46,412 bases of DNA from an uncultured Pelagibacteraceae bacterium (GTDB lineage Bacteria > Pseudomonadota > Alphaproteobacteria > Pelagibacterales > Pelagibacteraceae): assembly GCA_902547825.1 (NCBI GenBank), contig CACCPE010000008.1, positions 1-46,412 of the forward strand, written 5' to 3'. This document shows positions 4,796 through 35,678 of this stretch, piece after piece; within the stretch, counting starts at the first letter, position 1; the number at the start of each line of letters is the position of its first letter. The notes under the pieces are model-generated. The model was not told the origin of the DNA, searched no databases, and saw nothing but the letters and a program-made list of their open reading frames with translations. A program made the translations under genes and the position numbers.

Positions 4796-5173
4796 TACTT
4801 TTTAAAGTTGAAATTTTGTGGGATAACAAATATCTATCTTTATCTGAGTAATCCTTGTTTTCAACTTTTGACTCGGCTTCTTTAATCATTTTTTCCTTAA
4901 AATTTTTATCTAATTCTGAAAGTTCTTTTGCAGTTGAAGTTAGAATTAAAAGGTTATTATTTGAAAATTCTACAGTTCCCTCCTCTACGAAAAAAATTTT
5001 TTCTGATTCATCTTTGATCTTTATTAATCCAGGTCTTAAAAAAGTTATTAAAGAAACATGATCTTTTAATATACCGATTTCACCTTCAAATGCAGGTATA
5101 ATAACTTCGTTAGTTTCTATTTTTAAAATTGTTCTATCAGGTGATATAATTTCAAATGTAATTTTTTCAGACA

Positions 5174-5174
<1 letters not shown>
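4788..5174 (-). CDS. atpC: ATP synthase F1 subunit epsilon
   Basis: Part of the central stalk of F1F0 ATP synthase on the cytoplasmic side of the membrane; couples rotation to gamma and can inhibit ATP hydrolysis. The N-terminal beta-sandwich is recognisable from FEIISPDRTIL, VIIPAFEGEIGILKDH and VEEGTVEFSNN; a helical C-terminal part of about 40 residues follows. At 128 residues it is normal to slightly short. It is the last gene of atpHAGDC, overlaps the atpD stop by one base, and its 3' end overlaps the convergent rppH by 8 bases. Confidence 0.95.
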
Positions 5175-7475
<2,301 letters not shown>

Positions 7476-7476
<1 letters not shown>

Positions 7477-9002: not shown

Positions 9003-9003
9003 A

Positions 9004-9561
9004 TTAACTTTCTAACATTAATTGTTTGTATTTTTTAAGCTTATTTTTTATGGAGGTGTCAATCATGAAACTTCCTAGTTGAAGTTTTAAACCTCCAATT
9101 AACTCTTTATCTACCTTATAGTCAAATTTTAGAATTGCTCCCATCGATTGTGATAATTCTTTACTTATTTCATCTAAATCTTTTTTAGTTAATTCTTTAG
9201 ACGAAATTAGTGAAACTTTTACTTCCCCCCTTTTTTTTGAGCACAATCTCAAAAATGAGTTAGTGATTTTTTCTGAGAAAAAAATTCTCCTTTTCTTAAC
9301 AAGTAATAAAAAAAAGTTTATTAAGATTTTTGAAAACTCTAGCTTTTTTGCTAATAGATTAATAACTTCAGTCTGCTGATCTATAGTTTGGGTTGGATCT
9401 TTAACAAAATTTTTAAAATCAGAACTTGATTGGATTAGTAGTTGAAAGTTTTTTACATCATGTTCGACTTTATCCAGTTGGTTTGATTCTTTTGAAATTT
9501 CAAATAAGGCACGAGAGTATCTTTCTGAAGTTTCAGTTGAGAAAGATTTTATTGAGTTCAT
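9004..9561 (-). CDS. atpH: ATP synthase F1 subunit delta
   Basis: Peripheral-stalk protein (OSCP homologue) that holds the F1 head to the b subunits. The N-terminal helical domain shows [12 protein letters not shown], and the C-terminal part carries the OSCP pattern [37 protein letters not shown]. 185 residues is normal. It is first in atpHAGDC; the 79 bases upstream, between it and priA, hold two inverted repeats and are the largest gap inside this minus-strand run, making them the likeliest place for an atp promoter. Confidence 0.95.
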
Positions 9562-9586
9562 TTTTATTGTCTGACTTTAATGAAAA

Positions 9587-9606
9587 TATGGTGTGGTCGT
9601 ACCATA
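9587..9606 (-). terminator. Small hairpin with T-run downstream of priA
   Basis: On the minus strand TATGGT, an 8-base loop and ACCATA form a six-pair stem followed by TTTT. It sits 34 bases past the priA stop and before atpH. The stem is weak (two G/C pairs), so it could be a poor rho-independent terminator for priA or an element of the atp leader. Confidence 0.25.
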
Positions 9607-9613
9607 AGAGTAT

Positions 9614-9627
9614 AACTTGATCAAGTT
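9614..9627. promoter_or_regulatory. 14-base perfect palindrome in the atp leader
   Basis: AACTTGATCAAGTT equals its own reverse complement. It lies in the 79-base gap between the priA stop and the atpH start, 53 bases upstream of atpH. A dyad this exact in a genome with almost no spare DNA could be an operator. On the minus strand a -10-like TATACT overlaps its downstream end, but no good -35 stands at the normal distance. Function is inferred only from symmetry and position. Confidence 0.35.
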
Positions 9628-9640
9628 GCCAATTTAGAAC

Positions 9641-11584
9641 TTAAGCAAAGTTAATAGGATCAACATCAACCGTAAGTTTTATTTTAGGTGAGATTTTAAG
9701 GCCATTTAAGACATTTGTTATTTTTTTTTGCATTAAAAGCTGGTTATCAAATCTTATTAGTAATCTAGATCTATAATTCTTTTTAACCTTTAATAACGGC
9801 GAGTCTACAGGTCCTAAAACCTCAAGCTTTCTGATTTTATTTAATTTTAATTTAATTTCTCTGGCGCCTTGCAAACTTAATCCTCTATCTTTGGATGACA
9901 CTATAATTGCGATAAGTCTAATATATGGAGGAAGTTTATTTTTTGCTCTTATTTGAAGTTCATTTTTTAAAAGATCTTCAGATTTGTTTTTTATTAATTC
10001 ATTAAGAGTGAAATTTTGAGGTGCTAGAGTTTGATAAATTATCAAAGACTTTGAGCTAAACCTGCCCGCTCTTCCACTCAACTGATGATATAATTGAATA
10101 TTTTTTTCTGTTGTTCTTAAGTCATACCCTCTTCCAGAAAAATCTGCATCAATTACTACTATACAATTTAACTTAGGAAAATTAAAACCTTTAGAAATCA
10201 TTTGTGTTCCAACTAAAATATTTACTTTATTTTCGTAAATTGATTTAAATAAATTTTTTGTTTTTTCTTTTGATTTTAAGTAGTCGCTTGAAAATATATT
10301 TATTTTTTTTTGAGGAAATAATTCTTTTACTTCTTCGTATATCTTTTCTACACCCGGGCCATACATTATAAATTCACAATCACCGCTAGATTTACATTTT
10401 ACTTTTAATGATTTTTCAAATGAACAATGGTGACATACTGCTTTATTTTTTAATTTATGAAATGTTAAATATAAAGAACAGTTAGGACAAACCTTTTTAT
10501 AACCGCATTTCTTACAAATTAGGTACGGAGCAAATCCTCTTCTGTTTATAAAAAATAAAACTTGATCTCCCTTACTGAGAAAATCATCAACTAAATTTAT
10601 TGTTTCATTAGCAATAAATTTATTTTTAATTTTATTTAAATTTAAATTTATAATTTTTGTTTTAGGTAGTGGGTAGTTATCAAATCTTTTTGAAATCTTA
10701 ATATGTCTATATCTTTTATTTTGAATGTTATTGAATGTTTCTATCGAAGGAACTGAAGACACTAAATGTACTGGTATTTTTTCAAAATTTGCTCTTGCTA
10801 TAGCCATATCTCTAGCATTGTAAATTACGCCTTCATCTTGTTTATAAGAAGTATCGTGCTCTTCATCGACAATAATTATTCCAAGTTTTTTGAAAGGTAA
10901 AAGTAAGGCAGATCTAGCTCCAACTAAAATTTTTATCTTATTGTCAATTAATCCTTTCCAAATTATTCTTTTTTGTTTTGGCGTTATTTTAGAGTGCCAA
11001 ATCGCAGGCTCAAAACCAAAAAATTCCTCAAATCTTGATTTAAAATCATTTGTTAAAAATATTTCTGGTAGCAAAACTAATGCTTGGTTATTTTTTTCAA
11101 TTATTTTTTTAATTCGGGAAAAATAAACAAGAGTTTTACCTGAACCCGTCGTCCCTTGTAAAACTGATACATCAAATTTTTTATCTATTTTTTCTAAAAA
11201 ATCAAGTGCATTAGCTTGCTCGTCAGTTAAATTGAAAGTTTTTTTTTTTGTTTTTTTTGCTTCTGTCAAATTATCTTTTATTCTAACAAATTTATCTGAG
11301 CCACCAATAACCATTTTTAAAACAAGACCGATTGGAACCATATTATAAGTTGAAAACCATTCAATAAAATCAATTAGATTTTTATCAATCGAATATTGTG
11401 TTTTATTTGTTATATCTTTTATCTTTATATTTTTTGGTTCAGTATAATTATTTTTCCAGATAACACCAATTTCCTTTTTAGAACCAAAAGGTACTTCAAC
11501 AAGATTTCCAATTTTATTTTCAGGTTTTGAATTGTAGGTAAATGGAAAATTAAAAACTTTAGGCAACATCACTTGTGCTTTCAT
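9641..11584 (-). CDS. priA: Primosomal replication-restart helicase PriA
   Basis: Superfamily 2 DNA helicase that reloads the replisome at stalled forks. The Walker A motif GTTGSGKT is at residues 144-151 and the DEAH-like box is VDEEHD. The zinc-binding cysteines are all present (CKKCGYKKVCPNC, CHHC, then CKSSGDC), followed by the C-terminal helicase motifs VGTQMISKGFNFP and QLSGRAGR. At 647 residues it is shorter than the roughly 730 of E. coli, mainly at the N-terminal DNA-binding domain. The priA-atpHAGDC order is common in alphaproteobacteria. Confidence 0.96.
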   Translation of the reverse strand: MKAQVMLPKVFNFPFTYNSKPENKIGNLVEVPFGSKKEIGVIWKNNYTEPKNIKIKDITNKTQYSIDKNLIDFIEWFSTYNMVPIGLVLKMVIGGSDKFVRIKDNLTEAKKTKKKTFNLTDEQANALDFLEKIDKKFDVSVLQGTTGSGKTLVYFSRIKKIIEKNNQALVLLPEIFLTNDFKSRFEEFFGFEPAIWHSKITPKQKRIIWKGLIDNKIKILVGARSALLLPFKKLGIIIVDEEHDTSYKQDEGVIYNARDMAIARANFEKIPVHLVSSVPSIETFNNIQNKRYRHIKISKRFDNYPLPKTKIINLNLNKIKNKFIANETINLVDDFLSKGDQVLFFINRRGFAPYLICKKCGYKKVCPNCSLYLTFHKLKNKAVCHHCSFEKSLKVKCKSSGDCEFIMYGPGVEKIYEEVKELFPQKKINIFSSDYLKSKEKTKNLFKSIYENKVNILVGTQMISKGFNFPKLNCIVVIDADFSGRGYDLRTTEKNIQLYHQLSGRAGRFSSKSLIIYQTLAPQNFTLNELIKNKSEDLLKNELQIRAKNKLPPYIRLIAIIVSSKDRGLSLQGAREIKLKLNKIRKLEVLGPVDSPLLKVKKNYRSRLLIRFDNQLLMQKKITNVLNGLKISPKIKLTVDVDPINFA

Positions 11585-17274: not shown

Positions 17275-18150
17275 TCAACCATTAAGTTTTTTATACAATG
17301 TTTTTCCAATATCTGCTGGGGACTTGGAAATTGTTATTCCAGCTGATTTCATAATTTCAATTTTTTCCTCTGCTCCTCCTTTACCTCCAGAAATAATTGC
17401 ACCTGCGTGCCCCATTCTTCTGCCAGGTGGAGCTGTCAGACCAGCAACAAATCCTACGGTTGGCTTCTTTATTTTTTCTTTCTTTAAAAATTCAGCCGCT
17501 TCCTCTTCGGCAGATCCACCTATTTCACCTATCATAACTATTGATTTAGTATCATTATCTTTAAGAAAAAGCTCTAAACAATCAATAAAATTTGTTCCAT
17601 TAATAGGATCTCCACCAATTCCAATACAGGTCGATTGTCCCATTTTGTTTTCTGAAGTTTGTGCAACAGCCTCATATGTTAAAGTTCCAGATCTTGAAAT
17701 AATACCAACTGAACCTTTTCTATGAATATTTCCTGGCATAATACCAATTTTACATTCTTCAGGTGTGATTATTCCTGGACAATTAGGGCCAATCAATCTT
17801 GATTTACTTTTTTTTAAAATTTGTTTTACTTTTAACATATCTAAAATAGGAATTCCTTCAGTGATACAAACTATCAGTTCCATTTTAGACTCTATCGCCT
17901 CTATAATAGCAGAGCCTGCAAACTTAGGAGGAACATAAATCATTGTTGCATTAGCAGATGTTTTGTCCTTGGCCTCCTGCACAGAGTTGAATACAGGCAA
18001 GTTTAGATGCTTTTGACCACCTTTTTTTGGTGTCACACCTCCAACAAGCTGTGTTCCATATTTCAACGCTTGCTCGGAATGGAAAGTACCATGTGTGCCT
18101 GTAAAACCCTGGCATATTACTTTTGTATTTTTATTTATTAGCACTGACAT
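17275..18150 (-). CDS. sucD: Succinyl-CoA synthetase subunit alpha
   Basis: Alpha subunit of succinyl-CoA ligase, which forms ATP or GTP from succinyl-CoA. The CoA-binding Rossmann segment [15 protein letters not shown] is near residues 15-29, [13 protein letters not shown] at 118-130, and the phosphorylated histidine is residue 248 in [18 protein letters not shown]. 291 residues is normal. Its ATG overlaps the sucC stop by one base, fitting the need for equal subunit amounts. Confidence 0.98.
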
Positions 18151-19313
18151 TATTTTATTGCTTCCACAATTTTTTTTGCAGCATCATTTAAATCATAAGC
18201 TGATAAAATTTTTAAATTAGATCTATCAAGTATTTCTTTACCTTCTTTAAAATTAGTGCCAGCCAGCCTTACAACGAGCGGTACAGAAAGGTTAACTTGT
18301 TTAGCAGCCTCAACAACTCCTTGTGCTAAAATATCACATCTCATAATTCCACCAAAAATATTAATTAAAATTCCTTTAACATTTTTATCTGCCAAAATTA
18401 ATTTAAATGCTTCAGTAACTTTTTCTTTTGACGCTCCACCACCTACATCTAAAAAGTTTGCAGGTTCCTTACCATAAAGTTTTATTATATCCATTGTGGC
18501 CATTGCTAAGCCGGCTCCATTAACCATACATCCAATTGAACCATTAAGTTTTATATATGAAAGATCATGTTTGCTTGCCTCTGTCTCAGCAGGATCTTCC
18601 TCATTAAGATCTCTTAGCTTTAAAATTTCAGGTCTTCTAAAAATAGCATTATCATCGAAGTTCATTTTAGCGTCTAAACAAACAATTTTATTAGTCTTTG
18701 TTAATATCAAAGGATTAATTTCTATTAAATTTGCGTCTTTCTCTATTAAAATTTTGTATAATGATTTAATTAATTTAATACCTTCAGATTTTTGTTCATT
18801 GTTTAGGTTGAATATTTTTATCACTTTATTTAACTCATCTTCACTAGGACCCTCTTTTTTAAAGTCGATTTTATTGGTTATTATCTTTTCTGGAGAGTCG
18901 GCTGCTACTTTTTCTATGTCCATACCTCCCTCGGTGCTGCTGATAAATGCAATTTTTGAGCTTTCTCTATCAACTAAACAGGATAAGTAAAATTCTTTTT
19001 TTATCTCTGAAGCCTCTTCAATATAAAGTCTTTTTACTTTTTTTCCTTCTGGTCCAGTTTGATGTGTTATTAAAGTTTTACCCATAATACTTTTTGCAAC
19101 GGTTTCTAATTCAGAAATACTTTTCACAAGTTTTACCCCTCCAGCTTTTCCTCTACCTCCAGCATGAATTTGGGCTTTAACAACATATTGGCTGCCTTTT
19201 AAAATAGATATTTTTTCTTTTATTTCATTCAGTGAAAATATTACTACCCCATTAGATACCGGGACTCCATAATTCTTTAAAATTTCTTTAGCTTGATGCT
19301 CATGTATATTCAT
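18150..19313 (-). CDS. sucC: Succinyl-CoA synthetase subunit beta
   Basis: ATP-grasp subunit that binds nucleotide and succinate. [20 protein letters not shown] starts the protein, followed by [29 protein letters not shown] and the Mg/nucleotide region, and then the succinate-site [17 protein letters not shown] and [18 protein letters not shown]. 387 residues is typical. It heads the suc operon. In many alphaproteobacteria mdh lies directly upstream; here the upstream neighbour is a divergent membrane glycosyltransferase gene, and mdh is 8.5 kb away on the far side of the island. Confidence 0.98.
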
Positions 19314-19360: not shown

Positions 19361-20995
19361 ATGATTATAAAAAAGTATTCTTTATCAAATTTTTTTGTTT
19401 TTTTAACATTTATCATTTTATTAATCACAGGGTTTTTAACATATAAAGATTACGGAATTGGAATTGATGACAAATTTCACAGACTAAACGGATTTTATTG
19501 GTTAAATTATTTATTATCTTTTACTAGTTTTGAAGATTTAAAAAAAATAGTCGAGATTAAACTTTTATCATTTTCTGATTTTACTCTTCCTTCAATAGAA
19601 TATTACAATAGTTACAGCATAATTTTTGATGTACCCGCAGCATTATTAGAAGTTATTTTTAATAAAAATACACCTCAAGATTTTTATGAATTTAAACATT
19701 TATTAAATTTTTTATTTTTTTACTTAGGATGCTTTTTTTTCTACTTAATTTTAAATGAACGTTTTAATAAATTTATTTCATTAATTGGAACATTATTATT
19801 TATCTTATCGCCAAGAATATATGGTGAAAGTTTTTATAATATGAAAGACATTATCTATTTAACATTCATGTGTGCAGCATATTACTTTTGTTATAAAAGT
19901 TTTTTGTCTATGAATTTTAGAAATATTTTTTTTTTAGCTTCATTTTCAGCCGTGTGTATTCAATTACGTATATTTGGGTTACTTATTCCTTTTTCATTCA
20001 TTTCTTTTTATTTGCTGTCTCTTCTTGCAAGAACAAAAGATATTAAGGATGTTAATAAGATAATTTTTTTTACAATCCTCACTATATTATTAACGTATAT
20101 CCTTTGGCCTTATTTATGGGAAAATCCATTAAGCAGTTTTTTAAAAATATTTAAAAATATAATTCCTAATGTTTATATTCTTTTTAATGGTAGCTACATT
20201 GACAACGAATACTTACCTTATAGTTACCTGCCGCTTTGGATTTTTATAACAACGCCTATTTTACATCTATTTTTATTTTTTTTTGGTGCTTATTTTTTAT
20301 TAAGGAGATTTTTTAAAAGACTTATAAGTATTAAAGAAAAATCTATTACTTATGATTTGTGGAGAGGTAAAAAAGAAAAATTTGACATTTTTTTGCTTCT
20401 AAATTTTATGCTTTTATTTGGTTTAGTTATATTATTGAATTTAAAATTAATTAATGCATGGAAGCATTTATATTTTTTAAATTTCTTTTTAGTATATATT
20501 GGTGTTTTTTACATTAATATTATTTATATAAAATATTTTAAATTAAAAAATTTTAAGTATTTAATTGCGTTTTTTAGTTTAATCCTAATTTTTATCAGCT
20601 ACAGAATGATTTATTATCATCCTTATCAAGGTCTCTATTTTAATTTTCTAATATCAGATAAATTTAAAAATAAATTTGATAGAGATTTTACAGCATTATC
20701 TGCAAGAAATTTCTTTGATAAGATTTTATTAATTGAAGAGGATACAAAACTTATAAAAATTGCAAATGCATCATGGACTCCTCTTCAAAGGACACTAGAA
20801 ATTTATAAAAAAGACGAAAGAGAGAAAGTAAAACTTGTTAATCAAAATTACGAAGACGCTAACTATATTTACACAAACCATATCTCAGAGGTTGATAAAA
20901 CAGTAAATGATAAATATAATATTCCTAAAAGCTTTAGTAAATTTTACGATTTTACTGTAGATGGGGTTGTAATTTACAGTGTCTATAGGAGATGA
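19361..20995 (+). CDS. Polytopic membrane glycosyltransferase, GT-C (PMT/GT39-like)
   Basis: Probably transfers a sugar from a polyprenyl-phosphate donor on the outer face of the inner membrane. After TM helix 1 comes an acidic pair D36/D37 (GIGIDDKFHR), where GT-C enzymes hold their catalytic aspartate. SPRIYGESFYNMKDIIYL near residue 150 matches a pattern I associate with bacterial phospholipid-dependent GT39-type proteins. About ten hydrophobic segments fill residues 10-430, with a soluble C-terminal tail. Sugar and acceptor cannot be told from sequence. It is the first of four tightly packed plus-strand genes and divergent from sucC; the base composition is lower in G/C than in neighbouring TCA genes. 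Confidence 0.75.
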   Translation: MIIKKYSLSNFFVFLTFIILLITGFLTYKDYGIGIDDKFHRLNGFYWLNYLLSFTSFEDLKKIVEIKLLSFSDFTLPSIEYYNSYSIIFDVPAALLEVIFNKNTPQDFYEFKHLLNFLFFYLGCFFFYLILNERFNKFISLIGTLLFILSPRIYGESFYNMKDIIYLTFMCAAYYFCYKSFLSMNFRNIFFLASFSAVCIQLRIFGLLIPFSFISFYLLSLLARTKDIKDVNKIIFFTILTILLTYILWPYLWENPLSSFLKIFKNIIPNVYILFNGSYIDNEYLPYSYLPLWIFITTPILHLFLFFFGAYFLLRRFFKRLISIKEKSITYDLWRGKKEKFDIFLLLNFMLLFGLVILLNLKLINAWKHLYFLNFFLVYIGVFYINIIYIKYFKLKNFKYLIAFFSLILIFISYRMIYYHPYQGLYFNFLISDKFKNKFDRDFTALSARNFFDKILLIEEDTKLIKIANASWTPLQRTLEIYKKDEREKVKLVNQNYEDANYIYTNHISEVDKTVNDKYNIPKSFSKFYDFTVDGVVIYSVYRR

Positions 20996-21255
20996 AAGAA
21001 TTGAAAATATTTGTTTATAAATGTCTTACTGCTGCAATAATATTTTTTGTTTTATTTCAATTAACAATAGGTATTTCAATGAATCAAATAGAAAAAAAAA
21101 TAAATCTTTTAACTTCTGAAGAAAATATATTTAAAGTCAAAAATAAAATTAGAAAAGAATTGGAAACAGCAATCAAAAAAGATAGTTATTTTAATGATGA
21201 AGATGCATTACTTATAAAAAAATTTTTAAATAAAATAAAATCTGAATTAGAATAA
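20992..21255 (+). CDS. Small single-pass membrane protein, unknown
   Basis: Not a family I recognise. It has one N-terminal hydrophobic segment (about residues 9-30, CLTAAIIFFVLFQLTIGIS) followed by a charged, probably helical tail rich in K and E, suggesting a membrane-anchored helix with the tail in one compartment. The ATG overlaps the preceding stop (ATGA). An AGGAG at 20987-20991 touches that ATG directly, which is too close for a normal ribosome site, but stands 9 bases before an in-frame TTG at 21001; the real start may be that TTG (84 residues). Position between a GT-C enzyme and a GT2 enzyme suggests a helper role, by inference only. Confidence 0.65.
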   Translation: MKELKIFVYKCLTAAIIFFVLFQLTIGISMNQIEKKINLLTSEENIFKVKNKIRKELETAIKKDSYFNDEDALLIKKFLNKIKSELE

Positions 21256-21266
21256 CTTAATCTAAC

Positions 21267-22142
21267 TTGAAAAATTATCTTTTTTTAATACCTGTATTTA
21301 ATGACTGGAAATCTTTAAATCTACTTTTAAAAAAAATAAATGAGGAAATTCGTGAAAAATCAAGTTATTCACATATATTAATAATTGACGATAATTCTAC
21401 TGAAAAAATTTCCGTTGAAAAAAATTTACTTAAAAAATTTAAAAGTTTTAAAGTAATTAGTCTTAAAAAAAACTTAGGAAGCCAAAAATGTATAGCAATA
21501 GGTTTGAAATATTTACAGAAAGAAAATAAATACTATATAATTACAATTCTTGACTCAGACGGTGAAGATGATCCATCAAAAATAAATGAAATGATTGATA
21601 TGGCTAGCAATGCCTCAAATTTTGTAATTACATCAAATAGAACAAACAGAAAGGAAAACCTTTTTTTCAAATTACTATACTCTTTACATAAAATTTTTAC
21701 ATTTTTAGTTTCACTAAATTGGATAAGTTTTGGTAATTTTAGTTCATTTCATTCAAGAAATTTAAACATGATTTTAAAAAATAACAACGTTTGGCTTGCA
21801 TACTCTAGTGCTGTAGCTCTTAATTGCAAAATTAAAAGATTATACGCAAAAAGAAAACAAAGGTATTTTGGCAAATCTAAAGTAAATTTTCCAAGTTTAG
21901 CTTTACATTCATTGAGAGTTATAAGTGTTCTTTACAAAAGAGTTTTACTATTTTCATTTATTTATATAACAGCCTTATTTTTTTTGTATTATCTAAATAA
22001 AAGTATTTTAATATTTTTTTTGATTTTCTTTTTTATAATTTTCAATATATTGATTCTTATTGTAAAATTTTTTATAAATATAGAAAATTTAAATTCTTGG
22101 GATGAATACGTTAAAGAAATAAAAAAAATTAACAATTATTAA
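21267..22142 (+). CDS. GT2 family glycosyltransferase, polyprenyl-phosphate type
   Basis: Likely makes a polyprenyl-phosphate sugar at the cytoplasmic face that the neighbouring GT-C enzyme could use. The GT-A fold is visible: start IPVFND, nucleotide-site D41/D42 in IIDDNST and the metal-binding DSD at residues 96-98. Two hydrophobic helices near residues 215-265 resemble the C-terminal anchors of GtrB/DPM1-type enzymes. The start is TTG at 21267; no other start precedes it after the in-frame stop, and the fold needs those first residues. The RNRK-type catalytic loop is not obvious to me, so the exact subfamily is open. Confidence 0.8.
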   Translation: MKNYLFLIPVFNDWKSLNLLLKKINEEIREKSSYSHILIIDDNSTEKISVEKNLLKKFKSFKVISLKKNLGSQKCIAIGLKYLQKENKYYIITILDSDGEDDPSKINEMIDMASNASNFVITSNRTNRKENLFFKLLYSLHKIFTFLVSLNWISFGNFSSFHSRNLNMILKNNNVWLAYSSAVALNCKIKRLYAKRKQRYFGKSKVNFPSLALHSLRVISVLYKRVLLFSFIYITALFFLYYLNKSILIFFLIFFFIIFNILILIVKFFINIENLNSWDEYVKEIKKINNY

Positions 22143-22154
22143 TTTAATTACAAA

Positions 22155-22838
22155 ATGGAAAAATATCCTGAAGAAGCTACAGAAAGATTTGATAAAGCAA
22201 ATATTCACATAAATTATTGTCTCAGTTTTTTTAAGAAATTTATAAAGGGTAATATTCTAGAAGTTGGAGCAGGTTGTGGAAGTTTTACTAAGTTTTATCA
22301 AGAAAAAGAACAATCCATTACTTTAACAGAATTAGATAAAAAAAATTTTCTTGATCTTAAAAATAAATTTGATGGAAAAAAAAATATTTCTATTTCTAAT
22401 AGTTCTGTTGAGTTTCTGGAAAAAAAATTTGATACGATAATGTATTTACATGTTTTAGAACATATTTCAGATGATATTCAGGAATTAAAAAGAGCTATAG
22501 ATAAACTAAATAACAATGGTTATTTGGTAATAATGGTACCTGCTCATCAAAAAATTTATAGTAATTTAGATAAAGCTGTAGGTCATTTCAGAAGATATGA
22601 AAAAGAGTTTTTTAAAAAGGATTTACTTGGTTTGAAAAGAATAAAATTTATCTCTTTAGACTCTGTGGGATACTTTTTATATTTTCTAAATAAATTTTTT
22701 TTTAAAGAGGAAGTCTATCCTTCGAATTTAAAAATTTTTTTATGGGATAAAATCTTTACCCCAATAACCATGGTACTAGATATTTTTCTTATGTACAAAT
22801 TTGGTAAATGTTTTGTTGCAGTTTATAAAAAAGGATAA
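22155..22838 (+). CDS. Class I SAM-dependent methyltransferase
   Basis: SAM-binding motif I ILEVGAGCG is at residues 34-42, followed by the acidic end of strand 2 (TLTELD) and motif DTIMYLHVLEHISDD near residue 97. LVIMVPAHQKIYSNLDKAVGHFRRY is typical of methyltransferases that sit beside polyprenyl-phosphate glycosyltransferases in surface-glycan loci. Substrate unknown; probably a sugar or lipid-linked intermediate. It follows the GT2 gene by 12 bases, is last of the plus-strand half of the island, and faces the convergent GNAT gene across 55 bases. Confidence 0.8.
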   Translation: MEKYPEEATERFDKANIHINYCLSFFKKFIKGNILEVGAGCGSFTKFYQEKEQSITLTELDKKNFLDLKNKFDGKKNISISNSSVEFLEKKFDTIMYLHVLEHISDDIQELKRAIDKLNNNGYLVIMVPAHQKIYSNLDKAVGHFRRYEKEFFKKDLLGLKRIKFISLDSVGYFLYFLNKFFFKEEVYPSNLKIFLWDKIFTPITMVLDIFLMYKFGKCFVAVYKKG

Positions 22839-22893
22839 AAATAATTTAATATTAATTTTTTGAAAACTATTAAGTTCATATCTTAAGAAAAAA
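22839..22893. other. Convergent intergenic gap
   Basis: Fifty-five A/T-rich bases between the 3' ends of two facing gene sets. A 10-base palindrome TTAATATTAA followed by six T (22846-22861) is the closest thing to a plus-strand terminator, but it has no G/C stem. I see no gene in it. Confidence 0.3.
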
Positions 22894-23541
22894 TTATTCA
22901 AGATCAAATTTCTTTACTAACACTGTTAATAATCCCTTAGTTCTTAATTTTTTTCCTATTGTATCAAAATCAAATTTTTTAATATAAAAACTTTCTGCCT
23001 TTTCCGAATATGTTTCGCAACACATTGAGTTGAAGTTTTTATTTGTTGAGAATTTTTTTATTAAATCGTCCAAAAATAATTTTCCGTATCCTTTAGATCT
23101 AAAAGAATCTTTAATTGCTATTAAATTAAGATTTAAATTATCATTTAAAACTTTACGGTTTTTTCTTTCTATTTTTATCAAATCAATCCTTAATGATGAA
23201 ATTATTATGTCTAGAATGGTAAGAACATTTAAATTAGATATTAAATCATACAAGATTCTGAATTTAATATCTTTAAACTCATTTATTAAATATTTTGGTT
23301 TTTCGGCTAGGATTGCATAACCAATTATCTCGTTTTCTAAAATACAAGTAAATAGATATAATTTTTTTGATCTTATTAGTATGTCTAAATATTTACTAAT
23401 ATTAATATTAGAGAGCTGAGCTAAAATTGACTCTGGGTTACCTTCTTTAATAAGACTAATAATTTGTAATTTTTCGCTTTCATCAATAATATTTTTATAT
23501 TCTTTGATTTGTATTCTTTTTTCTTTATGATTTAAATTCAT
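22894..23541 (-). CDS. GNAT-family N-acetyltransferase
   Basis: Probable acetyl-CoA-dependent N-acyltransferase. Motif A is seen in LNLIAIKDSFRSKGYGKLFL near residues 135-155, where the R-x-x-G-x-G/A loop binds the acetyl-CoA pyrophosphate; CETYSEKAESFYIKKFDFDTIG behind it fits the usual motif B with its Asn/Tyr region. The N-terminal 100 residues are divergent. The start overlaps the end of the upstream membrane protein by 17 bases, so the two are co-expressed. An amino sugar made by the nearby DegT-like enzyme is a plausible acceptor, by inference. Confidence 0.75.
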   Translation of the reverse strand: MNLNHKEKRIQIKEYKNIIDESEKLQIISLIKEGNPESILAQLSNINISKYLDILIRSKKLYLFTCILENEIIGYAILAEKPKYLINEFKDIKFRILYDLISNLNVLTILDIIISSLRIDLIKIERKNRKVLNDNLNLNLIAIKDSFRSKGYGKLFLDDLIKKFSTNKNFNSMCCETYSEKAESFYIKKFDFDTIGKKLRTKGLLTVLVKKFDLE

Positions 23542-25108
23542 TACATTTTCTTACCACTAATTTTTTTAATAAAGAATTTATATCCATCAATTTAAAGCAA
23601 TCTTTAGAAACGTAATCAAAAATTAAATGCTCTAATCTCTCCTGATCAATTTTTTTAGGGTCAAATATATATAAATTTTGAATTTTTTTAGATAATATTT
23701 TATTAATTAAAAATTCTTTATAAACTTCGAAATATTTACTATTTTTTTTGGGATAACTGATATTGTCAAATGTTCTGCTAGGAGTATTTAAATTCTCACT
23801 TAATATACTTGAAAAAAAATTATATTCAGTAATAAGCATTTTATTAGATTTATCATTTTTTAATATATCATGTAAATTTTTTAGAATTTTTAACTCTTCA
23901 TCAGGATTTTCAAAGTATGGTGATATCCAATTTAAACTTTTTAGGTTTTCACTAAAAGAACCCATTTTAATTGAATTACTTTTTTTTACATTTTCAAGCT
24001 CATGAAATTTTCTATCAATATTATATCTATCTGTGTATTTAATTGTTGCAAATATACATAATGCTAAAAACGAATATATTATAAAAAAATTTTTTTTAAT
24101 TTTGAAAGCATTTATAAAATAAATTAAAAATCCAGTGAGTAATGGTATCAAATAAAATATATAAATTTGATTTTTAGTATAAACTTGGTGGAAAATATTT
24201 GAAAGAACAAAGAAAATAATAGCGATCAATATTTTAAACTCGTCGGAATCAAAATAATTTCTAATATTTTTGTAAAAGAACAAATTTAAAAATATTATTC
24301 CAAAAAGAACAATATATATAAATTTAAACTCTAAAATTGTATTATTTAAATTTAAGATATAATTTAAATATCTGTCTGTTCCGATTGATTGGGGGAATAA
24401 AAATATTTGTAAAATCAAATCGTTTAGATTTATTTCTCTCAAAATTAAGAAAAGTGTAAAAAATACTATAAATGTAAAAGCTCCTAGGATGTAGTAATAA
24501 ATTAAACTTAAATCTTTAGTATTTAGATAATAAATCAAGTTTAATAAACTGAATGTAATCATAAAATAAGCTGCTGGGACTTGCTTTGAAAAAAAAGCTA
24601 AGCAGAGGAAAAAAGATACAAAAAACCATAAATAATTTTTTTTTTTTGTTATCCATAAAATAATAAAATAAAATGAAAAAAGTGAAAAAAATGATGAATG
24701 AAGATCTAAAAAAGGACTACCGCTTACAGGGTAAGCAAGTAAAGAGAGCGAAACTGATATTATAAAAATATATTTAAGCTTTATCCTTAAATTAATAAAA
24801 ATTAAAATAGATGAGATGGCAACTGCTACATTCAATAAAGATGAATGAATTAAATACGATTTCCAATTATTCCCAAATATATAGAAGAAAATAGATTGCA
24901 AATAATCTATGAGCAAACCGTGAACAATCCAATAGTCTTTAATTGGATCGTCTCCTAAAAGAATTCTATAAGCAAAATCATAATGGATAAATGTATCAAC
25001 TGGAAAAACACCATTTGATCCCACTTGAAAATTTATAAAAAAAGCAAACAAACTTATAAAAATAATTAAACTGAATTCCTTATATTTATATTTTACCAAA
25101 TGGGACAT
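23525..25108 (-). CDS. Polytopic membrane protein, putative GT-C glycosyltransferase
   Basis: About ten to twelve hydrophobic segments over residues 12-355, then a soluble tail of some 170 residues. An acidic loop after TM1 (D38 in FPVDTFIHYDFAYRIL) and the general build fit a GT-C sugar transferase, but no diagnostic motif lets me assign the family, so it could be another integral membrane protein. It starts 5 bases after the DegT-like gene. Its 3' end overlaps the GNAT gene by 17 bases. Codon choice is extreme (TTT, ATT, AAA). Confidence 0.6.
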   Translation of the reverse strand: MSHLVKYKYKEFSLIIFISLFAFFINFQVGSNGVFPVDTFIHYDFAYRILLGDDPIKDYWIVHGLLIDYLQSIFFYIFGNNWKSYLIHSSLLNVAVAISSILIFINLRIKLKYIFIISVSLSLLAYPVSGSPFLDLHSSFFSLFSFYFIILWITKKKNYLWFFVSFFLCLAFFSKQVPAAYFMITFSLLNLIYYLNTKDLSLIYYYILGAFTFIVFFTLFLILREINLNDLILQIFLFPQSIGTDRYLNYILNLNNTILEFKFIYIVLFGIIFLNLFFYKNIRNYFDSDEFKILIAIIFFVLSNIFHQVYTKNQIYIFYLIPLLTGFLIYFINAFKIKKNFFIIYSFLALCIFATIKYTDRYNIDRKFHELENVKKSNSIKMGSFSENLKSLNWISPYFENPDEELKILKNLHDILKNDKSNKMLITEYNFFSSILSENLNTPSRTFDNISYPKKNSKYFEVYKEFLINKILSKKIQNLYIFDPKKIDQERLEHLIFDYVSKDCFKLMDINSLLKKLVVRKCNEFKS

Positions 25109-25112
25109 TTTT

Positions 25113-26360
25113 TTAACTTTGCTCGTAAAATTGCTTTATTTTTTTTGATACAAAATTAACATATGAAGGTGTTATTTTACGGTGAACAGGCAAACATATA
25201 AGTTCTCTCTCATATCTTTCAGCTACTTTATTAATAACTTTTTTGTTAAACATTTTCGAACAATTGTAATAGTGTTTTAACCTTACTTCGACTCCTTTAT
25301 TAAGTAAAAAATTATTTAATTTTTCTTTTTTTTTTACTAAAATAGGAAAATCTAAAAAGTTTTGATAGTTTTCGTCTGTTTTAAGTAGTAAAGAAAAATT
25401 CTTATTCTTATTTTTACCTAATATTTTTGAATAAAGCTTATGATTTTTTTTTCGTATCTTAAAGGAAATATTTTTATCTTTTTCTTTTAACTGAAAATAT
25501 GTTGCATTAATAGAAATCGGACTTATTTTAGAAAAATAATATTTTGGAAACTTTTTATTTATAGATTTTAATGATGGGTAGAATAATTCCAACAAAAATT
25601 TTATTTTATATTTGTGAGCAAACCTTATGATATAATTAAAAAAATACTTGTATAGTTTATTTACTGACATAATCTTTAAAATAAAAAAAATTAATATTTG
25701 TTTTAATAATGATAATTTTGGAAAATTCTTCAATTTTTTTTCTTGTTTAATATAAAAGTTGTTAAAATTTTTATCATTCGTAGACAAAGCTCCTCCGTAT
25801 AGAGCAGATATATTTTTCATTATATTAAAACTATAAATAGAATAGTCTCCTAGTGATCCTGAGAAATATTTTTTATTTCTCACATTCGAAAAGTTATCAA
25901 AATAAATAGCATTGTCTTCTATTAAAGGAATATTATTTTTTTTTGAGATAGACTTAACTTGTTTTGCCACATTGTAATTGTTAAACATATTAGTCATTAC
26001 AATTGCTAAAGTCTTTTTCGAAACTTTTCTTTTAACTTCTGCCAGATCTATAATCCCAGTTTGGTGATCTAAATCACAAAATTTTACTTTGAGTTTAAGG
26101 TTTACTGCAATATTTACCATCTCGGGAAGGTTATACGCACAAATTATAACTTCATTTTTTTTATTCTTATTTTTTTCTATTAAAAAATTTAGCAAAAATA
26201 AAAATCCTACTCTACATTGACTAAAAAGAAACACATTGTTCTTTTTTGATTGTTTTTGAATATAATTTTTAATAAATCTTATTTTTTCTAAGTTTTTTCC
26301 AAAGCTGATTAGGGCCAAGTAAAAATTTTTTATGCTAAGATAGATCCATATTCTAAACAT
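25113..26360 (-). CDS. DegT/DnrJ/EryC1-type PLP enzyme (sugar aminotransferase-like)
   Basis: Fold-type I PLP enzyme, related to those adding an amino group to nucleotide-linked keto sugars. Visible are the aspartate that contacts the PLP ring (D149 in PLIEDNA), GDYSIYSFNIMKNISALYGG with the Schiff-base lysine 182 and the GGA(L)STND that follows, and the C-terminal LPVHRKITPSYV. The usual EDAAQ/hga stretch is altered and the 40-residue N-terminal region is unlike typical members, so substrate and even transaminase activity are uncertain. It overlaps the preceding GMC-like gene by one base. Confidence 0.72.
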   Translation of the reverse strand: MFRIWIYLSIKNFYLALISFGKNLEKIRFIKNYIQKQSKKNNVFLFSQCRVGFLFLLNFLIEKNKNKKNEVIICAYNLPEMVNIAVNLKLKVKFCDLDHQTGIIDLAEVKRKVSKKTLAIVMTNMFNNYNVAKQVKSISKKNNIPLIEDNAIYFDNFSNVRNKKYFSGSLGDYSIYSFNIMKNISALYGGALSTNDKNFNNFYIKQEKKLKNFPKLSLLKQILIFFILKIMSVNKLYKYFFNYIIRFAHKYKIKFLLELFYPSLKSINKKFPKYYFSKISPISINATYFQLKEKDKNISFKIRKKNHKLYSKILGKNKNKNFSLLLKTDENYQNFLDFPILVKKKEKLNNFLLNKGVEVRLKHYYNCSKMFNKKVINKVAERYERELICLPVHRKITPSYVNFVSKKIKQFYEQS

Positions 26361-27763
26361 TATATTTCTTTTCCTATTCTTCGAGCGTTTGCCATGATAG
26401 CTCCGAGTGGATATTTATTACTTTTGAATTTAAGAACAGATCCATCAACAATATATATATTTTTATTTTTGTTAAGTTGACAATTTTCATTTACGTGTAA
26501 TTTTTTTGAAATACCCATAGTAAATGTTCCAAAATAATGAAAGTCTGCTCCATAACCCGGAAAATGGTTAATATACAATGGAAATATTTTTTTTGAAGTT
26601 TTAAGAAAGTTAAAAATTATTTTGCCAAATTTTTCAAAATAATTTTTTTGATTTTTTTTCTTTGAATAAATAATAAAAATGTTTTTTTGTTTTTTAATAT
26701 ATAAATTGCTGAATCTTGGATGAATAAAGATATTTGAAAAAATGAAATATTCTCTTAAAAAATTTAATAGAGGTTTAAATGGTGACAAGATCCTTTTAAA
26801 TTTAATAATAGCATCTATTATTAACCTATTTCCTGGTCTGAAGTCAGCAGTAAACAAGGTAGGATTTTTTCTTAATTTTAAATGGAAATGCGATGGTTGA
26901 AAATTCATTTTATTAGTCCATTTTTTTTTTGAAAAATAAAGTGAAAATAATCTTGGATGGTGATTAATTTTGATTTCAGTTTTTATTTTCAAATAGTCCA
27001 TAATTAACTTTGTGGTAATTAAGGTGCCACATCCTAAAACAAGTTTTTTTGTAGTGAATGATTTATTTTTTGATCCATTTGAACATTTTAAAATAATATT
27101 TTTTTTATCTTTAACTATTCTTTCGACAAAATAATTATGAAAAATTATTCTTTTATTTTTTAAATTTTTTTTAAAAAAATTAGTCGCTGTCAAACTGTCT
27201 TTTTTTTCGTTTATGAGGTTAAGATTTATTTTTTGCTTTTCTCTTTTTTTTTGAAAAGCCAAAATTGGTTCATCTGATTTTAAAATTTTATTTTTGTTTA
27301 GAAACTCATCATTAATAAAAGGGTTTCTTTCGAATAAGTTTTGATTTTTTTCGTTTATTTTTCCTAATAAATTTTGTTTTTTAAATATCTCCTTAAATGA
27401 ATTTAGTATTTTTTTTTGTGTTTTTTTTGAGAAATCCTGAAGATCATTTTTTATATTTTTATCTATTTGCAAACCCCAATAATTTGAAAGACCGCCAAAT
27501 TCTAATGAGCCAAAAAATTTTGTTTTTTTTTTTATTAAAATTTTATTTATTGAGAAATAATCCAGAACTTGTTTTTCTTCACCTATCATTTGAGGTGGTA
27601 AAATTTCTAAGATATGTTTGTTATTTATTTGAGAAAAACTTTTTTTTGTTTTTTTAAATGAAATAACATCTATTTTTTTTTGCTTTTTCAAATAGCTATC
27701 AATAAATGACAAACTAGAAAGCCCTGATCCTACTACTATAATGTCATATATTTTTTTTTTCAT
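26360..27763 (-). CDS. GMC-like FAD-dependent oxidoreductase
   Basis: Flavoprotein likely to oxidise an alcohol or sugar. The N-terminus DIIVVGSGLSSLSF is an FAD dinucleotide fold, but the third glycine of GxGxxG is serine 17. The C-terminus matches GMC_C: HYFGTFTMG with the catalytic-type histidine region, then IYIVDGSVLKFKSNKYPLGA for the usual D-x-S...NP segment. 467 residues is a little short for GMC enzymes. It is first in the minus-strand half of the island, starting 27 bases after the mdh stop, and overlaps the DegT-like gene, so oxidation followed by transamination of the same intermediate is a reasonable idea. A/T content is very high. Confidence 0.7.
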   Translation of the reverse strand: MKKKIYDIIVVGSGLSSLSFIDSYLKKQKKIDVISFKKTKKSFSQINNKHILEILPPQMIGEEKQVLDYFSINKILIKKKTKFFGSLEFGGLSNYWGLQIDKNIKNDLQDFSKKTQKKILNSFKEIFKKQNLLGKINEKNQNLFERNPFINDEFLNKNKILKSDEPILAFQKKREKQKINLNLINEKKDSLTATNFFKKNLKNKRIIFHNYFVERIVKDKKNIILKCSNGSKNKSFTTKKLVLGCGTLITTKLIMDYLKIKTEIKINHHPRLFSLYFSKKKWTNKMNFQPSHFHLKLRKNPTLFTADFRPGNRLIIDAIIKFKRILSPFKPLLNFLREYFIFSNIFIHPRFSNLYIKKQKNIFIIYSKKKNQKNYFEKFGKIIFNFLKTSKKIFPLYINHFPGYGADFHYFGTFTMGISKKLHVNENCQLNKNKNIYIVDGSVLKFKSNKYPLGAIMANARRIGKEI

Positions 27764-27790: not shown

Positions 27791-28747
27791 CTATAAACTT
27801 GAGTCAATTTTTTTTGCAGCGTTGAAAAGTTCTTTGACTGCATCTACTGACTTTTTAAAGTTTTCTTTTTCATCAGCAGTTAACTCTAATTCAATTATTT
27901 TTTCTACTCCGCCTGAACCTATTATCACTGGCACACCAGCATATAAATTTTTTGTACCGTATTCCCCATTTAAATATGCGGCACATGGTAGTTTTTTTTT
28001 TAAATTTTTAAGGTAACACTCTGCCATCTCAACGCCAGACGCTGCTGGAGCATAAAAAGCTGAGCCTTTTTCTAAGTATTTTACAATTTCTGCTCCCCCT
28101 TTTTTAGTTCTATCAATTATTTCTTCCAACTTTTTCTGACTAAGTTTTCCCTCTGTCACAAAATCATTTAATTTTTTTCCTTTGATTTTAGTAGCACCCA
28201 ACATTGCGACCATGCTATCTCCATGCCCTCCTAAAACAAATGAGTTTATCTCTCCCACAGGTACATTTAATTCTTTTGATAAAAAATAGATAAATCTAGA
28301 GGAGTCTAAAATGCCTGCCATACCCACAACTTTATTATGAGGAAAGCCTGAGTATTTTTGTAAGGCCATTACTATTACATCTAATGGATTTGTAATACAA
28401 ATCACAAACGCATTAGGAGAAGTTTTTTTAATTCCTTCTGCAACTTCTTTGATTATTTTCAAGTTTATACCGAGTAAATCATCTCTCGTCATTCCTGGTT
28501 TTCTTGGGACACCGGCTGTTACAATTATTACATCTGAATTTTTTGTATCTTCATATTTATCTGTTCCAATTAGTTTAATATTAAAATTATTTACGGGGGA
28601 TGATTGAGCTATATCTAATGCTTTCCCTTTAGCTAGACCAGCTGCTACGTCAAATAACACAACGTCTGCTAGCTCTTTTAATGCGATAAGGTGAGCTAAG
28701 GTTCCTCCTATTTGTCCAGCTCCGATCAATGTAATCTTTTTATTCAT
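27791..28747 (-). CDS. mdh: Malate dehydrogenase (NAD)
   Basis: Oxidises malate to oxaloacetate in the TCA cycle. NAD site [16 protein letters not shown] at residues 5-20; substrate arginines R82 and R88 region in [13 protein letters not shown] (the arginine and methionine pattern of malate, not lactate, dehydrogenase); ICITNPLDV; and catalytic histidine 175 in LGGHGDSMV. 318 residues fits the LDH-like MDH group of alphaproteobacteria. It follows mmsA by 23 bases. Its classical partner sucC lies beyond the island. Confidence 0.97.
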
Positions 28748-33573: not shown

Positions 33574-34566
33574 TTATATTTTTTTCATCAAACTCTCTGC
33601 TATTTGAACTGTATTTAAAGCCGCTCCTTTTAATAAATTATCAGAAACTACCCACAAATTGATAGCTTTAATATTGGAATTGTCCTTTCTTATCCTAGAA
33701 ATGAAAGTTGTATAGTCGCCTTCGGCTTCTAAGGGAGTTATATAACCACCATCTTTTCTTTCATCGACAACTTTACATCCTGGAGCTGTTTTAAGAATCT
33801 TAATTATATTTTCAAAATCATAAAGGTTTTCAAATTCAATATTAATTGACTCTGAATGCCCTGTTTTCACGGGAACCCTTACGCAAGTTGCTGTAACCTC
33901 GATTTCGGTATTTAAAATTTTTTTTGTCTCATTAGTCATTTTCAATTCTTCTTTTGTATACCCATCTTTTTCAAAAATGTCGATGTGAGGTATTAAGTTA
34001 AATGCTATTTGTTTCGTAAAGTTTTGAGAATTAATTTTTTTTCCCTCTAAATATTTTTTTGATTGGTCAAACAGCTCATCCATTGACGCTTTGCCAGCGC
34101 CAGATACAGCTTGATAAGTTGAGACTACTACTCTTTTAATTTTGTACTCATCATGTAAAGGTTTTAAAGCTAAAACCATTTGCATTGTCGAGCAGTTTGG
34201 GTTTGAAATTATATTGTTATGTTTATCAAGAGCTTCAGGATTAACTTCTGAAACAACAAGTGGAACATCTTTTTGCATTCTAAAATAACTTGAATTGTCA
34301 ATTATTATAGTTTTTTTTGATGCTTTTGGAGCCCATTCTTTCGCAATCTTACTTCCTGCTGCAAAAAAAGTAATTTGTGCTTTAGAAAAATCATAATTTT
34401 CTAAAACCTCAATCTCAATTTCTTTATTTCTAAATTTAATTTTTTTTCCTGCACTTTTTGAAGAAGCTACTAAAAAAAGGTTGTCGAGTTTAATTTTAGA
34501 TTTCTCTAAAATTTCAATTGTTTTTCTTCCAACATTTCCTGATGCACCGATTATAGCAAAATTCAT
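33574..34566 (-). CDS. asd: Aspartate-semialdehyde dehydrogenase
   Basis: Reduces aspartyl phosphate to aspartate semialdehyde for lysine, threonine, methionine and cell-wall diaminopimelate. NADP site IIGASGNVGRKTIEIL at residues 5-20, catalytic cysteine C125 in ISNPNCSTMQM, and the substrate-site CVRVPVKTGHSES with its histidine. 330 residues is normal. It follows leuB by 11 bases, an order (leuCDB-asd) widespread in alphaproteobacteria. Confidence 0.97.
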   Translation of the reverse strand: MNFAIIGASGNVGRKTIEILEKSKIKLDNLFLVASSKSAGKKIKFRNKEIEIEVLENYDFSKAQITFFAAGSKIAKEWAPKASKKTIIIDNSSYFRMQKDVPLVVSEVNPEALDKHNNIISNPNCSTMQMVLALKPLHDEYKIKRVVVSTYQAVSGAGKASMDELFDQSKKYLEGKKINSQNFTKQIAFNLIPHIDIFEKDGYTKEELKMTNETKKILNTEIEVTATCVRVPVKTGHSESINIEFENLYDFENIIKILKTAPGCKVVDERKDGGYITPLEAEGDYTTFISRIRKDNSNIKAINLWVVSDNLLKGAALNTVQIAESLMKKI

Positions 34567-34577
34567 AATAATCTACT

Positions 34578-35678
34578 TTATTTCAAATTTGCAATAATTG
34601 CATCACCCATATCGGTTGTTAAAACCTCTTTCTTATTTTTAGACATTATGTCTTTAGTTCTCAATCCCTCGTCGAGAACAGCTTGAACTGCATTATCAAG
34701 TTGATCAGCTTCTTTTCCTAAATCCAAAGAATATCTTAATGCCATTGATAAACTCAAAATAGCGGCTATAGGATTGGCAATATTTTTTCCCTCTATATCT
34801 GGAGCTGAGCCGTGTACTGGTTCATAAAGTGATCTTATTCTTCCATTCTTATCTTTAGCGCCTAATGATGCAGAAGGTAAAAGACCTAAGGAACCAGTAA
34901 GCATTGCAGCTTCATCAGATAAAATATCTCCAAATAAATTGTCGGCCAATATAACATCAAATTGTTTTGGATATCTTAATAGCTGCATCGCACAATTGTC
35001 TGCAAACATATGGTTTAATTCCACTTTTTTAAATTCTTTATCTTTAATAACCTGAACCTCCTCTCTCCATAAAACACCGGACTCCATTACATTAGATTTT
35101 TCACAAGAGGTAACTTTATTTCTTCTTTTCTTTGCTAAATCAAAAGCAACTCTAGCAATTCTGTGTATTTCCGACGTGGTATAAGTATGTGTGTTAATAC
35201 CTTTTCTTTGATTATTTTCCATTGGTTCTATACCTCGCGGTTCACCATAATAAATACCACCAGTTAATTCTCTTACTATCATAATGTCTAAACCAGAAAC
35301 TATTTCAGGTTTAAGTGTTGAGGACTCAACTAATTGTTTAAAGCAAATCGCAGGCCTTAGGTTAGCAAAAAGTTTTAATTCTTTTCTAAGTTTCAAAATG
35401 GCTCTCTCGGGTTTTTTTGAAAATTCTAGATTATCCCATTTCGGTCCTCCACAAGCCCCTAGTATTACTGCGTCAGACTCTAGAGACTTGTAAAAAACCT
35501 CATCTGTAATTGGAACTTTGTTAGCGTCAATGGATGCACCTCCAATTAGTTCTTGATTTAAAACAAAATCTAAAGATTTTGTTTTGTTCATCCAATCTAG
35601 TATTTTTTTTACTTCAGCAATCACCTCTGGGCCAATACCATCGCCAGGTAAAAGTAAAATTTTCCTAGTCTTAGGCAT
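34578..35678 (-). CDS. leuB: 3-isopropylmalate dehydrogenase
   Basis: Third step of leucine synthesis: oxidative decarboxylation of 3-isopropylmalate with NAD+. [17 protein letters not shown] at the N-terminus, the leucine-specific [14 protein letters not shown], the substrate region [14 protein letters not shown], and [21 protein letters not shown] near the metal site are all typical, as is [19 protein letters not shown]. 366 residues. The start overlaps the end of leuD by 8 bases. Confidence 0.98.

What the first reader, a model, noticed from the sequence alone, without database searches (positions are those of the whole stretch)
19361..27763. Eight-gene surface-glycan-like island inserted exactly between mdh and sucC
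mdh-sucCDAB-lpdA is a standard alphaproteobacterial string. Here the flanks are intact but about 8.4 kb of accessory genes sit between mdh and sucC: GT-C, small membrane protein, GT2 and methyltransferase on the plus strand; GMC-like, DegT-like, GT-C-like and GNAT on the minus strand. They are visibly poorer in G/C: the 60 bases from 26641 hold 5 G/C and those from 20401 hold 9, against 22 for the 60 bases from 31981 in sdhA. The facing halves suggest two acquisitions or an insertion with its own promoter. The gene set could build and modify a lipid-linked amino sugar, which is inference. This is the best candidate for an undescribed system in the window.
Basis: partly seen in the sequence, partly recalled or inferred. 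Interest (0 to 1): 0.62.

Follow-up and report, generated by a model that had tools for sequence, protein, structure and literature searches.

The report
Swappable surface-sugar gene island in SAR11
In a genus of SAR11 ocean bacteria, a slot inside the TCA-cycle genes almost always holds an interchangeable set of sugar-transferring genes that neighbours swap by recombination, probably to change their surface sugars; it is a new location and a new mix of parts for a known kind of variable surface island.

Summary
In detail: eight tightly packed ORFs (19361-27763) lie exactly between mdh and sucC. The locus is not a one-off insertion. In 95 completely read mdh-sucC intervals from genus-mates, 90 carry 0.9-8.5 kb of cassettes and 5 are empty (4-15 bp). 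Eighteen named Pelagibacteraceae loci that appear to lie outside the genus are also empty. One gene, a GT-C-like transferase (GTC2), is in 89 of 90 inserts, always on the TCA strand. The other genes come and go in about 32 combinations; this exact eight-gene set was seen once. GTC2 alleles are 35% identical at the median although core proteins are 87% identical, and they do not follow the core tree. Sugar-tailoring modules do follow the GTC2 tree. Genomes with near-identical cores but different cassettes show a recombination footprint: flank identity falls from 0.91 to 0.76 next to the island. Genes are under purifying selection. Best reading: a replacement island for envelope-glycan decoration using polyprenyl-phosphate sugars. 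The oxidase-aminotransferase-acyltransferase module here probably makes an N-acylated amino sugar (inference). Low GC is mostly amino-acid composition, weak evidence of foreign origin. I found no description of this locus; it is a new variant of a known kind.

The parts
19361..20995 (+). GTC1: predicted GT-C polytopic glycosyltransferase; in 33 of 90 occupied loci
   Evidence: PMT_2 (PF13231) E=0.0045 alone, but 24 of 27 orthologues hit it, best 1.4e-10; seven hydrophobic segments
20992..21255 (+). smp: 87-aa protein with one N-terminal membrane segment; found only with GTC1
   Evidence: 4-nt overlap with GTC1; 26 of 26 occur with GTC1; distances co-vary with GTC1, rho 0.44; no family match
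21267..22142 (+). GT2: GtrB/ArnC-like polyprenyl-phosphate glycosyltransferase with C-terminal membrane segments
   Evidence: PF00535 1.3e-13; profile hits GtrB sll0501 3.5e-21 and ArnC 1.5e-18 in the PDB; invariant D96, D98, D101
22155..22838 (+). SAM-dependent methyltransferase (short form)
   Evidence: PF13489 4.4e-11
22894..23541 (-). GNAT-like N-acyltransferase; occurs only with GMC-DegT (7 of 7)
   Evidence: PF13673 9.7e-5, just under cut-off; co-occurrence
23525..25108 (-). GTC2: GT-C-like transferase that defines the locus (89 of 90 occupied loci, always TCA strand)
   Evidence: PMT_2 in 33 of 58 orthologues, best 1.5e-11
25113..26360 (-). DegT-family PLP aminotransferase, putative catalytic Lys182
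   Evidence: PF01041 98.8 bits, over cut-off 19.8; K182 invariant in 10 of 10
26360..27763 (-). GMC-like FAD oxidoreductase; always paired with DegT (10 of 10)
   Evidence: PF05199 2.7e-4, under cut-off; GxG at 12-14 and H409 invariant in 10 of 10
27791..28747 (-). mdh, right flank; carries the recombination footprint
18150..19313 (-). sucC, left flank

Best explanation
This is a replacement flexible genomic island for decoration of an envelope glycan, sitting in a fixed slot of the TCA operon. Exchange: donor and recipient recombine through conserved mdh and sucC, so whole cassettes are swapped (shown by footprints; sucC side shown only in three related pairs). Chemistry (inferred): GT2 loads a sugar on polyprenyl phosphate; the GMC-like oxidase makes a keto sugar, DegT aminates it, GNAT N-acylates it, and the methyltransferase may methylate a sugar. 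The GT-C proteins GTC2 and GTC1 (with its small partner smp) then transfer sugars in the periplasm to a surface glycan. GTC2 alleles are matched to the sugar module they travel with, as expected if GTC2 recognises that sugar. The likely pay-off is a changed surface against phages or grazers. My estimates: replacement island 0.95; glycan decoration 0.8; N-acylated amino sugar in this window 0.5; tailoring at lipid-linked rather than nucleotide-sugar level 0.3.
For: Occupancy: 90 of 95 intervals filled, GTC2 in 89 and never on the other strand, about 32 architectures. Decoupling from the core: median aa identity GTC2 0.345 vs core 0.870, Spearman -0.03; Mantel GTC2-core rho -0.03, p 0.78. Linkage: Mantel GTC2-GT2 0.61, GTC2-MT 0.67, GTC2-GMC 0.54, GMC-DegT 0.86; DegT changes state 2 times on the GTC2 tree, 10 on the core tree, 9.7 in shuffles; long methyltransferase 4 vs 17; FkbM 4 vs 11. 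Recombination: 21 near-core pairs with different cassettes show mdh-side identity 0.907 at about 3 kb falling to 0.763 at the border, 12 same-cassette pairs stay at 0.89-0.93; L123/L126/L151 (core 95-96%, GTC2 34-37%) drop on both sides. Function kept: dN/dS 0.07-0.34. Chemistry: GT2 closest to GtrB and ArnC; PMT_2 in GTC1 and GTC2 families; GMC and DegT always together, overlapping or nearly so; GNAT only with them, and in L131 a formyltransferase-like gene stands where GNAT is missing; other cassettes carry DprE1/DprE2-like or DprE1-like plus class III aminotransferase pairs.
Against: No substrate, glycan or phage phenotype was seen. GMC and GNAT matches are below curated cut-offs. The window's own GTC2 has no meaningful Pfam match and no usable structure was obtained (pLDDT 41.8). 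No GtrA flippase was found (1 of 169 genomes), so how the lipid-linked sugar crosses the membrane is open. Many cassettes lack GT2, so the donor must then be made elsewhere. The sucC-side footprint rests on three pairs that share members, and the first 800 bp of sucC is intrinsically about 5 points more variable.
Confidence: 0.7

Rival explanations
1. The cassette glycosylates secreted or envelope proteins (PMT-like protein glycosylation) rather than a polysaccharide or LPS.
For: The only Pfam family matched widely by the GT-C proteins is PMT_2, named for protein mannosyltransferases.
Against: PMT_2 is a broad family whose bacterial members include lipid and glycan transferases (own knowledge); no adhesin, pilin or S-layer gene lies in any of the cassettes read.
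Confidence: 0.2
2. An anti-phage defence or toxin island.
For: Hypervariable content with methyltransferase and GNAT genes at a fixed slot.
Against: PADLOC gives only one weak hit, a methyltransferase domain to mads_2 at 3.3e-7; the common genes are a GT-C-like membrane protein and GT2.
Confidence: 0.03
3. A single recent foreign insertion particular to this genome, marked by low GC.
For: GC 19-24% against 30-37% in the flanks; exact eight-gene set seen once.
Against: 90 of 95 genus-mates have inserts at the same slot; GC3 is near that of the flanks.
Confidence: 0.03
4. GTC2 is a fast-evolving vertically inherited core gene and only its neighbours move.
For: 89 of 90 occupied loci have it, always in one orientation.
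Against: Core pairs at 95-96% have GTC2 at 34-37%, while L120/L122 share GTC2 at 80% with core 86%; dN/dS 0.11-0.19 for GTC2; border drops of identity.
Confidence: 0.04

Closest known systems
SAR11 hypervariable region HVR2 and O-chain replacement islands (Wilhelm 2007 PMC2217521; Lopez-Perez 2014 PMC4033161)
   Same: Fixed position, surface-glycan genes, different content in close relatives, exchange by homologous recombination with raised divergence at the borders.
   Different: HVR2 lies between the 16S-23S and 5S rRNA genes and spans almost 50 genes; this one is 0-8.5 kb between mdh and sucC, built round one GT-C gene. HVR1, 3 and 4 are other loci by their gene lists.
Gtr serotype-conversion operons gtrABC (PMC3688519)
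   Same: GtrB-like GT2 plus a highly divergent membrane transferase that sorts into families; horizontally exchanged.
   Different: No GtrA; the transferase co-varies with sugar-tailoring enzymes; chromosomal slot exchanged through flanking genes rather than prophage-borne.
Arn pathway (ArnB DegT, ArnC GT2, ArnT GT-C, ArnA formyltransferase)
   Same: Same enzyme classes: DegT, GT2, GT-C, and in some cassettes a formyltransferase-like gene.
   Different: All NCBIfam Arn models far under cut-off; a GMC-like oxidase replaces the nucleotide-sugar oxidation step.
DprE1/DprE2 epimerisation of polyprenyl-phosphoryl ribose
   Same: Sister cassette L158 carries a DprE1-like and a DprE2-like gene beside GTC2: oxidation then reduction of a lipid-linked sugar.
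   Different: Not in the window; scores below the curated cut-offs.
Glycosyltransferase genes in host-recognition islands of pelagimyophages (PMC7029224)
   Same: Surface-modifying transferases linked to SAR11-phage interplay.
   Different: GT8-type dominates there; no GTC1, GTC2 or GMC homologue in the phage records.

Membership tests
Replacement flexible genomic island | Same chromosomal position occupied in many relatives with different gene sets | tested here: met
   90 of 95 occupied, about 32 architectures
Replacement flexible genomic island | Raised divergence at the borders from homologous recombination | tested here: met
   0.907 to 0.763 on the mdh side in 21 pairs, flat in 12 controls; both sides in three related pairs
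Replacement flexible genomic island | Codes for an exposed surface structure | not testable with these tools
   Inferred from gene families only
SAR11 HVR2 | Lies between 16S-23S and 5S rRNA genes | tested here: not met
   Lies between mdh and sucC
Gtr system | GtrB-like polyprenyl-phosphate glycosyltransferase | tested here: met
   Profile vs sll0501 GtrB 3.5e-21
Gtr system | GtrA flippase in the operon | tested here: not met
   None in any cassette; PF04138 in 1 of 169 genomes
Gtr system | Serotype-specific divergent membrane transferase | tested here: inconclusive
   Divergence pattern fits; specificity not measurable here
Arn pathway | Members pass the curated ArnB/ArnC/ArnA models | tested here: not met
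   ArnC model 33 of 529 bits, ArnB model 38 of 631
GT-C superfamily (GTC1, GTC2) | Sequence-profile match to a GT-C family | tested here: met
   PMT_2 in 24 of 27 and 33 of 58 members at E<=0.1, best 1.4e-10 and 1.5e-11; GTC2 of the window itself has none
GT-C superfamily (GTC1, GTC2) | GT-C fold | tested here: inconclusive
   Single-sequence model of GTC2 unusable, pLDDT 41.8; no PDB sequence hit of note
DegT/DnrJ aminotransferase | Family score over cut-off and conserved PLP lysine | tested here: met
   98.8 bits; K182 invariant in 10 of 10
GMC oxidoreductase | Family score over cut-off | tested here: not met
   GMC_oxred_C 21.9 of 24.6 bits; GxG at 12-14 and H409 are conserved, so called GMC-like only
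GNAT acetyltransferase | Family score over cut-off | tested here: not met
   22.8 of 23.6 and 20.3 of 20.7 bits, so called GNAT-like only

The most novel reading that the evidence does not exclude
A serotype-like locus in which each GT-C lineage comes with its own enzymes that oxidise and then aminate or reduce a sugar while it is attached to polyprenyl phosphate (GMC+DegT+GNAT here, DprE1-like pairs elsewhere), giving SAR11 a second exchangeable surface code, separate from the O-chain island and inserted in the TCA operon.
Probability: 0.22. Interest if true: 0.72.

Novelty: new variant of a known kind. Interest (0 to 1): 0.52.

Why it matters
SAR11 are the most abundant marine bacteria and how they vary their surface against phages is open. 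This locus is small and bounded by conserved genes, and its alleles fall into discrete types that can be read from any assembled contig holding mdh-sucC. Cassette type can therefore be correlated with phage susceptibility, depth or season in existing genomes and metagenomes. It also offers natural experiments: near-identical genomes that differ by one swapped cassette.

Tried and rejected
Structure prediction of GTC2 and GMC from single sequences failed (pLDDT 41.8 and 32.9), so no fold search was run. PDB sequence searches with GTC2, GTC1 and GMC profiles found nothing credible. hhalign of GTC1 against GTC2 gave probability 23%, so common descent of the two is not shown. Phage records hold no homologue of GTC1, GTC2 or GMC, nor do plasmids of GMC; IMG/VR gave one partial GTC2 hit, possibly a chimera. 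Promoter-like matches are no more frequent than in shuffles (73 vs 70.2). Low GC as evidence of transfer was rejected as weak. Paper searches combining SAR11 with mdh or sucC found no description of this locus; subscription papers are not covered.

Full report
WHAT IS THERE. The window comes from a SAR11 (Pelagibacteraceae) genome of 34 contigs, 894 kb. The eight ORFs lie exactly as described between mdh and sucC. They form two closely packed facing groups. On the plus strand: GTC1 and smp overlap by 4 nt, smp-GT2 are 11 nt apart, GT2-MT 12 nt. On the minus strand: GMC and DegT overlap by 1 nt, DegT-GTC2 are 4 nt apart, GTC2 and GNAT overlap by 17 nt. The minus-strand group starts 27 bp after the mdh stop and could be read from the TCA operon (inference). 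GC drops to 19-24%, but the drop is in codon positions 1 and 2; GC3 is close to that of other window genes.

THE SLOT IN RELATIVES. sucC was located in 128 of 169 genus genomes, its upstream DNA was fetched, and 95 intervals (this window included) hold both sucC and mdh. Five are empty (4-15 bp); one of these, L202, is a second divergent sucC copy in a genome and may be a contaminant. Ninety hold 0.9-8.5 kb. GTC2 is in 89 of the 90, always on the TCA strand. Counts of the others: methyltransferase 41, GT2 36, GTC1 33, smp 26, FkbM methyltransferase 14, DegT 10, GMC 10, GNAT 7, others 6 or fewer. The exact set of this window occurs once; L146 (genome G034) has seven of the eight genes in the same order. 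In the named collection, 18 Pelagibacteraceae loci whose contigs do not match any genus genome have gaps of 6-49 bp, while two genomes of a sister genus (g9) carry related cassettes at the same slot (L220, L225). The slot is therefore near-universal in this genus and not confined to it.

CASSETTES ARE SWAPPED, NOT JUST DIVERGED. Median pairwise identity is 0.870 for mdh+aldehyde dehydrogenase+sdhB and 0.345 for GTC2, with no correlation (Mantel -0.03, p 0.78). L123, L126 and L151 have cores 95-96% identical, yet GTC2 at 34-37% and three different gene sets; L120 and L122 share GTC2 at 80% with cores at 86%. In 21 pairs with near-identical cores and different cassettes, nucleotide identity falls from 0.907 about 3 kb away to 0.763 in the 400 bp next to the island; 12 pairs with the same cassette stay at 0.89-0.93. 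On the sucC side the L123/L126/L151 pairs fall from 0.91-0.98 to 0.74-0.80; other pairs are uninformative there because that whole side is diverged. This is the border signature described for replacement islands exchanged by homologous recombination (PMC4033161). Genes remain under purifying selection, dN/dS 0.07-0.34, leaving aside one pair (MT of L200/L201) that compared two different copies.

MODULES FOLLOW GTC2. On the core tree DegT/GMC needs 10 changes for 10 carriers, as scattered as random; on the GTC2 tree it needs 2 (shuffled mean 9.7). The long methyltransferase needs 4 against 17, the short one 5 against 13, FkbM 4 against 11, GT2 11 against 23. Distances of GTC2 correlate with those of GT2 (0.61), MT (0.67) and GMC (0.54), and GMC with DegT (0.86); GTC1 goes with smp (0.44) and GT2 (0.59) but hardly with GTC2 (0.11). 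So a cassette is a GTC2 type with its enzymes, plus a semi-independent GTC1-smp module. GTC1-smp also occurs at a second slot, leuB-asd, in L112 and L176. Shuffles and Mantel permutations ignore relatedness, so their p-values are guides only.

CHEMISTRY. GT2 is closest to GtrB (sll0501, 3.5e-21) and ArnC (1.5e-18) among solved proteins: enzymes that load a sugar on polyprenyl phosphate. GTC1 and GTC2 families match PMT_2, a GT-C family using such donors. DegT has its PLP lysine, K182, in all ten; GMC keeps the FAD motif and the C-terminal histidine, H409. GMC and DegT always occur together and overlap or nearly touch, and GNAT occurs only with them. In L131 a formyltransferase-like gene (ArnA-type region, E 0.0019 for its family member in L180) is present where GNAT is absent. 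Other cassettes use a DprE1-like oxidase with a DprE2-like reductase (L158) or with a class III aminotransferase (L145, L205). The recurring theme is oxidise a sugar, then aminate or reduce it, then cap it. Step by step: slot, modularity, linkage and recombination are shown; enzyme classes are shown at profile level (GMC and GNAT sub-threshold); donor lipid, sugar identity, acceptor and phage role are inferred.

COMPARISON. It works like the O-chain replacement island HVR2 of SAR11 and, in its GtrB-like plus divergent GT-C pairing, like Gtr serotype conversion. It is not HVR2 (position) and not a Gtr operon (no GtrA). The four published HVRs of HTCC1062 are other loci, and I found no paper describing mdh-sucC, within an open-access library.

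VERDICT. A real, well-supported and apparently undescribed location and architecture for a known kind of element. Interest 0.52: the biology is of a familiar kind, but the bounded slot, the GTC2-typed cassettes and the recombination footprints make surface variation in SAR11 directly testable.

Noticed in passing
window 33574-35678 (asd, leuB; empty here); L112 about 4663-8851, L176 about 4422-8603: A second, rarer slot between leuB and asd, about 6 kb from mdh: 5 of 83 readable loci carry 1.5-4.2 kb there; in L112 and L176 these include GT2-like, GTC1 and smp genes.
   Followed up: partly
L207 (G021 contig 1, 366.5-386.4 kb), 7368-11557: GNAT-DegT-GMC-GT2 group near tuf and an RNA methyltransferase-like gene, in a genome whose mdh-sucC slot lacks it: a third place for the same module.
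   Followed up: partly
L209 2-592 (IMGVR_UViG_3300006565_000104): A viral contig related to T4-like marine phages (85% to Marine virus AG-345-O18) ends in a 20% GC truncated GTC2-like frame, 52% to L200; real phage carriage or assembly chimera is undecided.
   Followed up: partly
L158, L145 and L205, mdh-sucC interval: Sister cassettes with DprE1-like (9.9e-26) and DprE2-like (4.1e-25) genes, or DprE1-like plus class III aminotransferase, in a SAR11 genus.
   Followed up: partly
G101 contigs 12 and 26: One genus genome holds two divergent sucC copies (L202 and L176), suggesting contamination in that assembly.
   Followed up: no
G000 contig 2, 42974-44634: The window's genome has a separate, clearly scoring PMT_2 transferase (100.6 bits) next to a GtrB-like GT2 (34% to an island GT2).
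   Followed up: no
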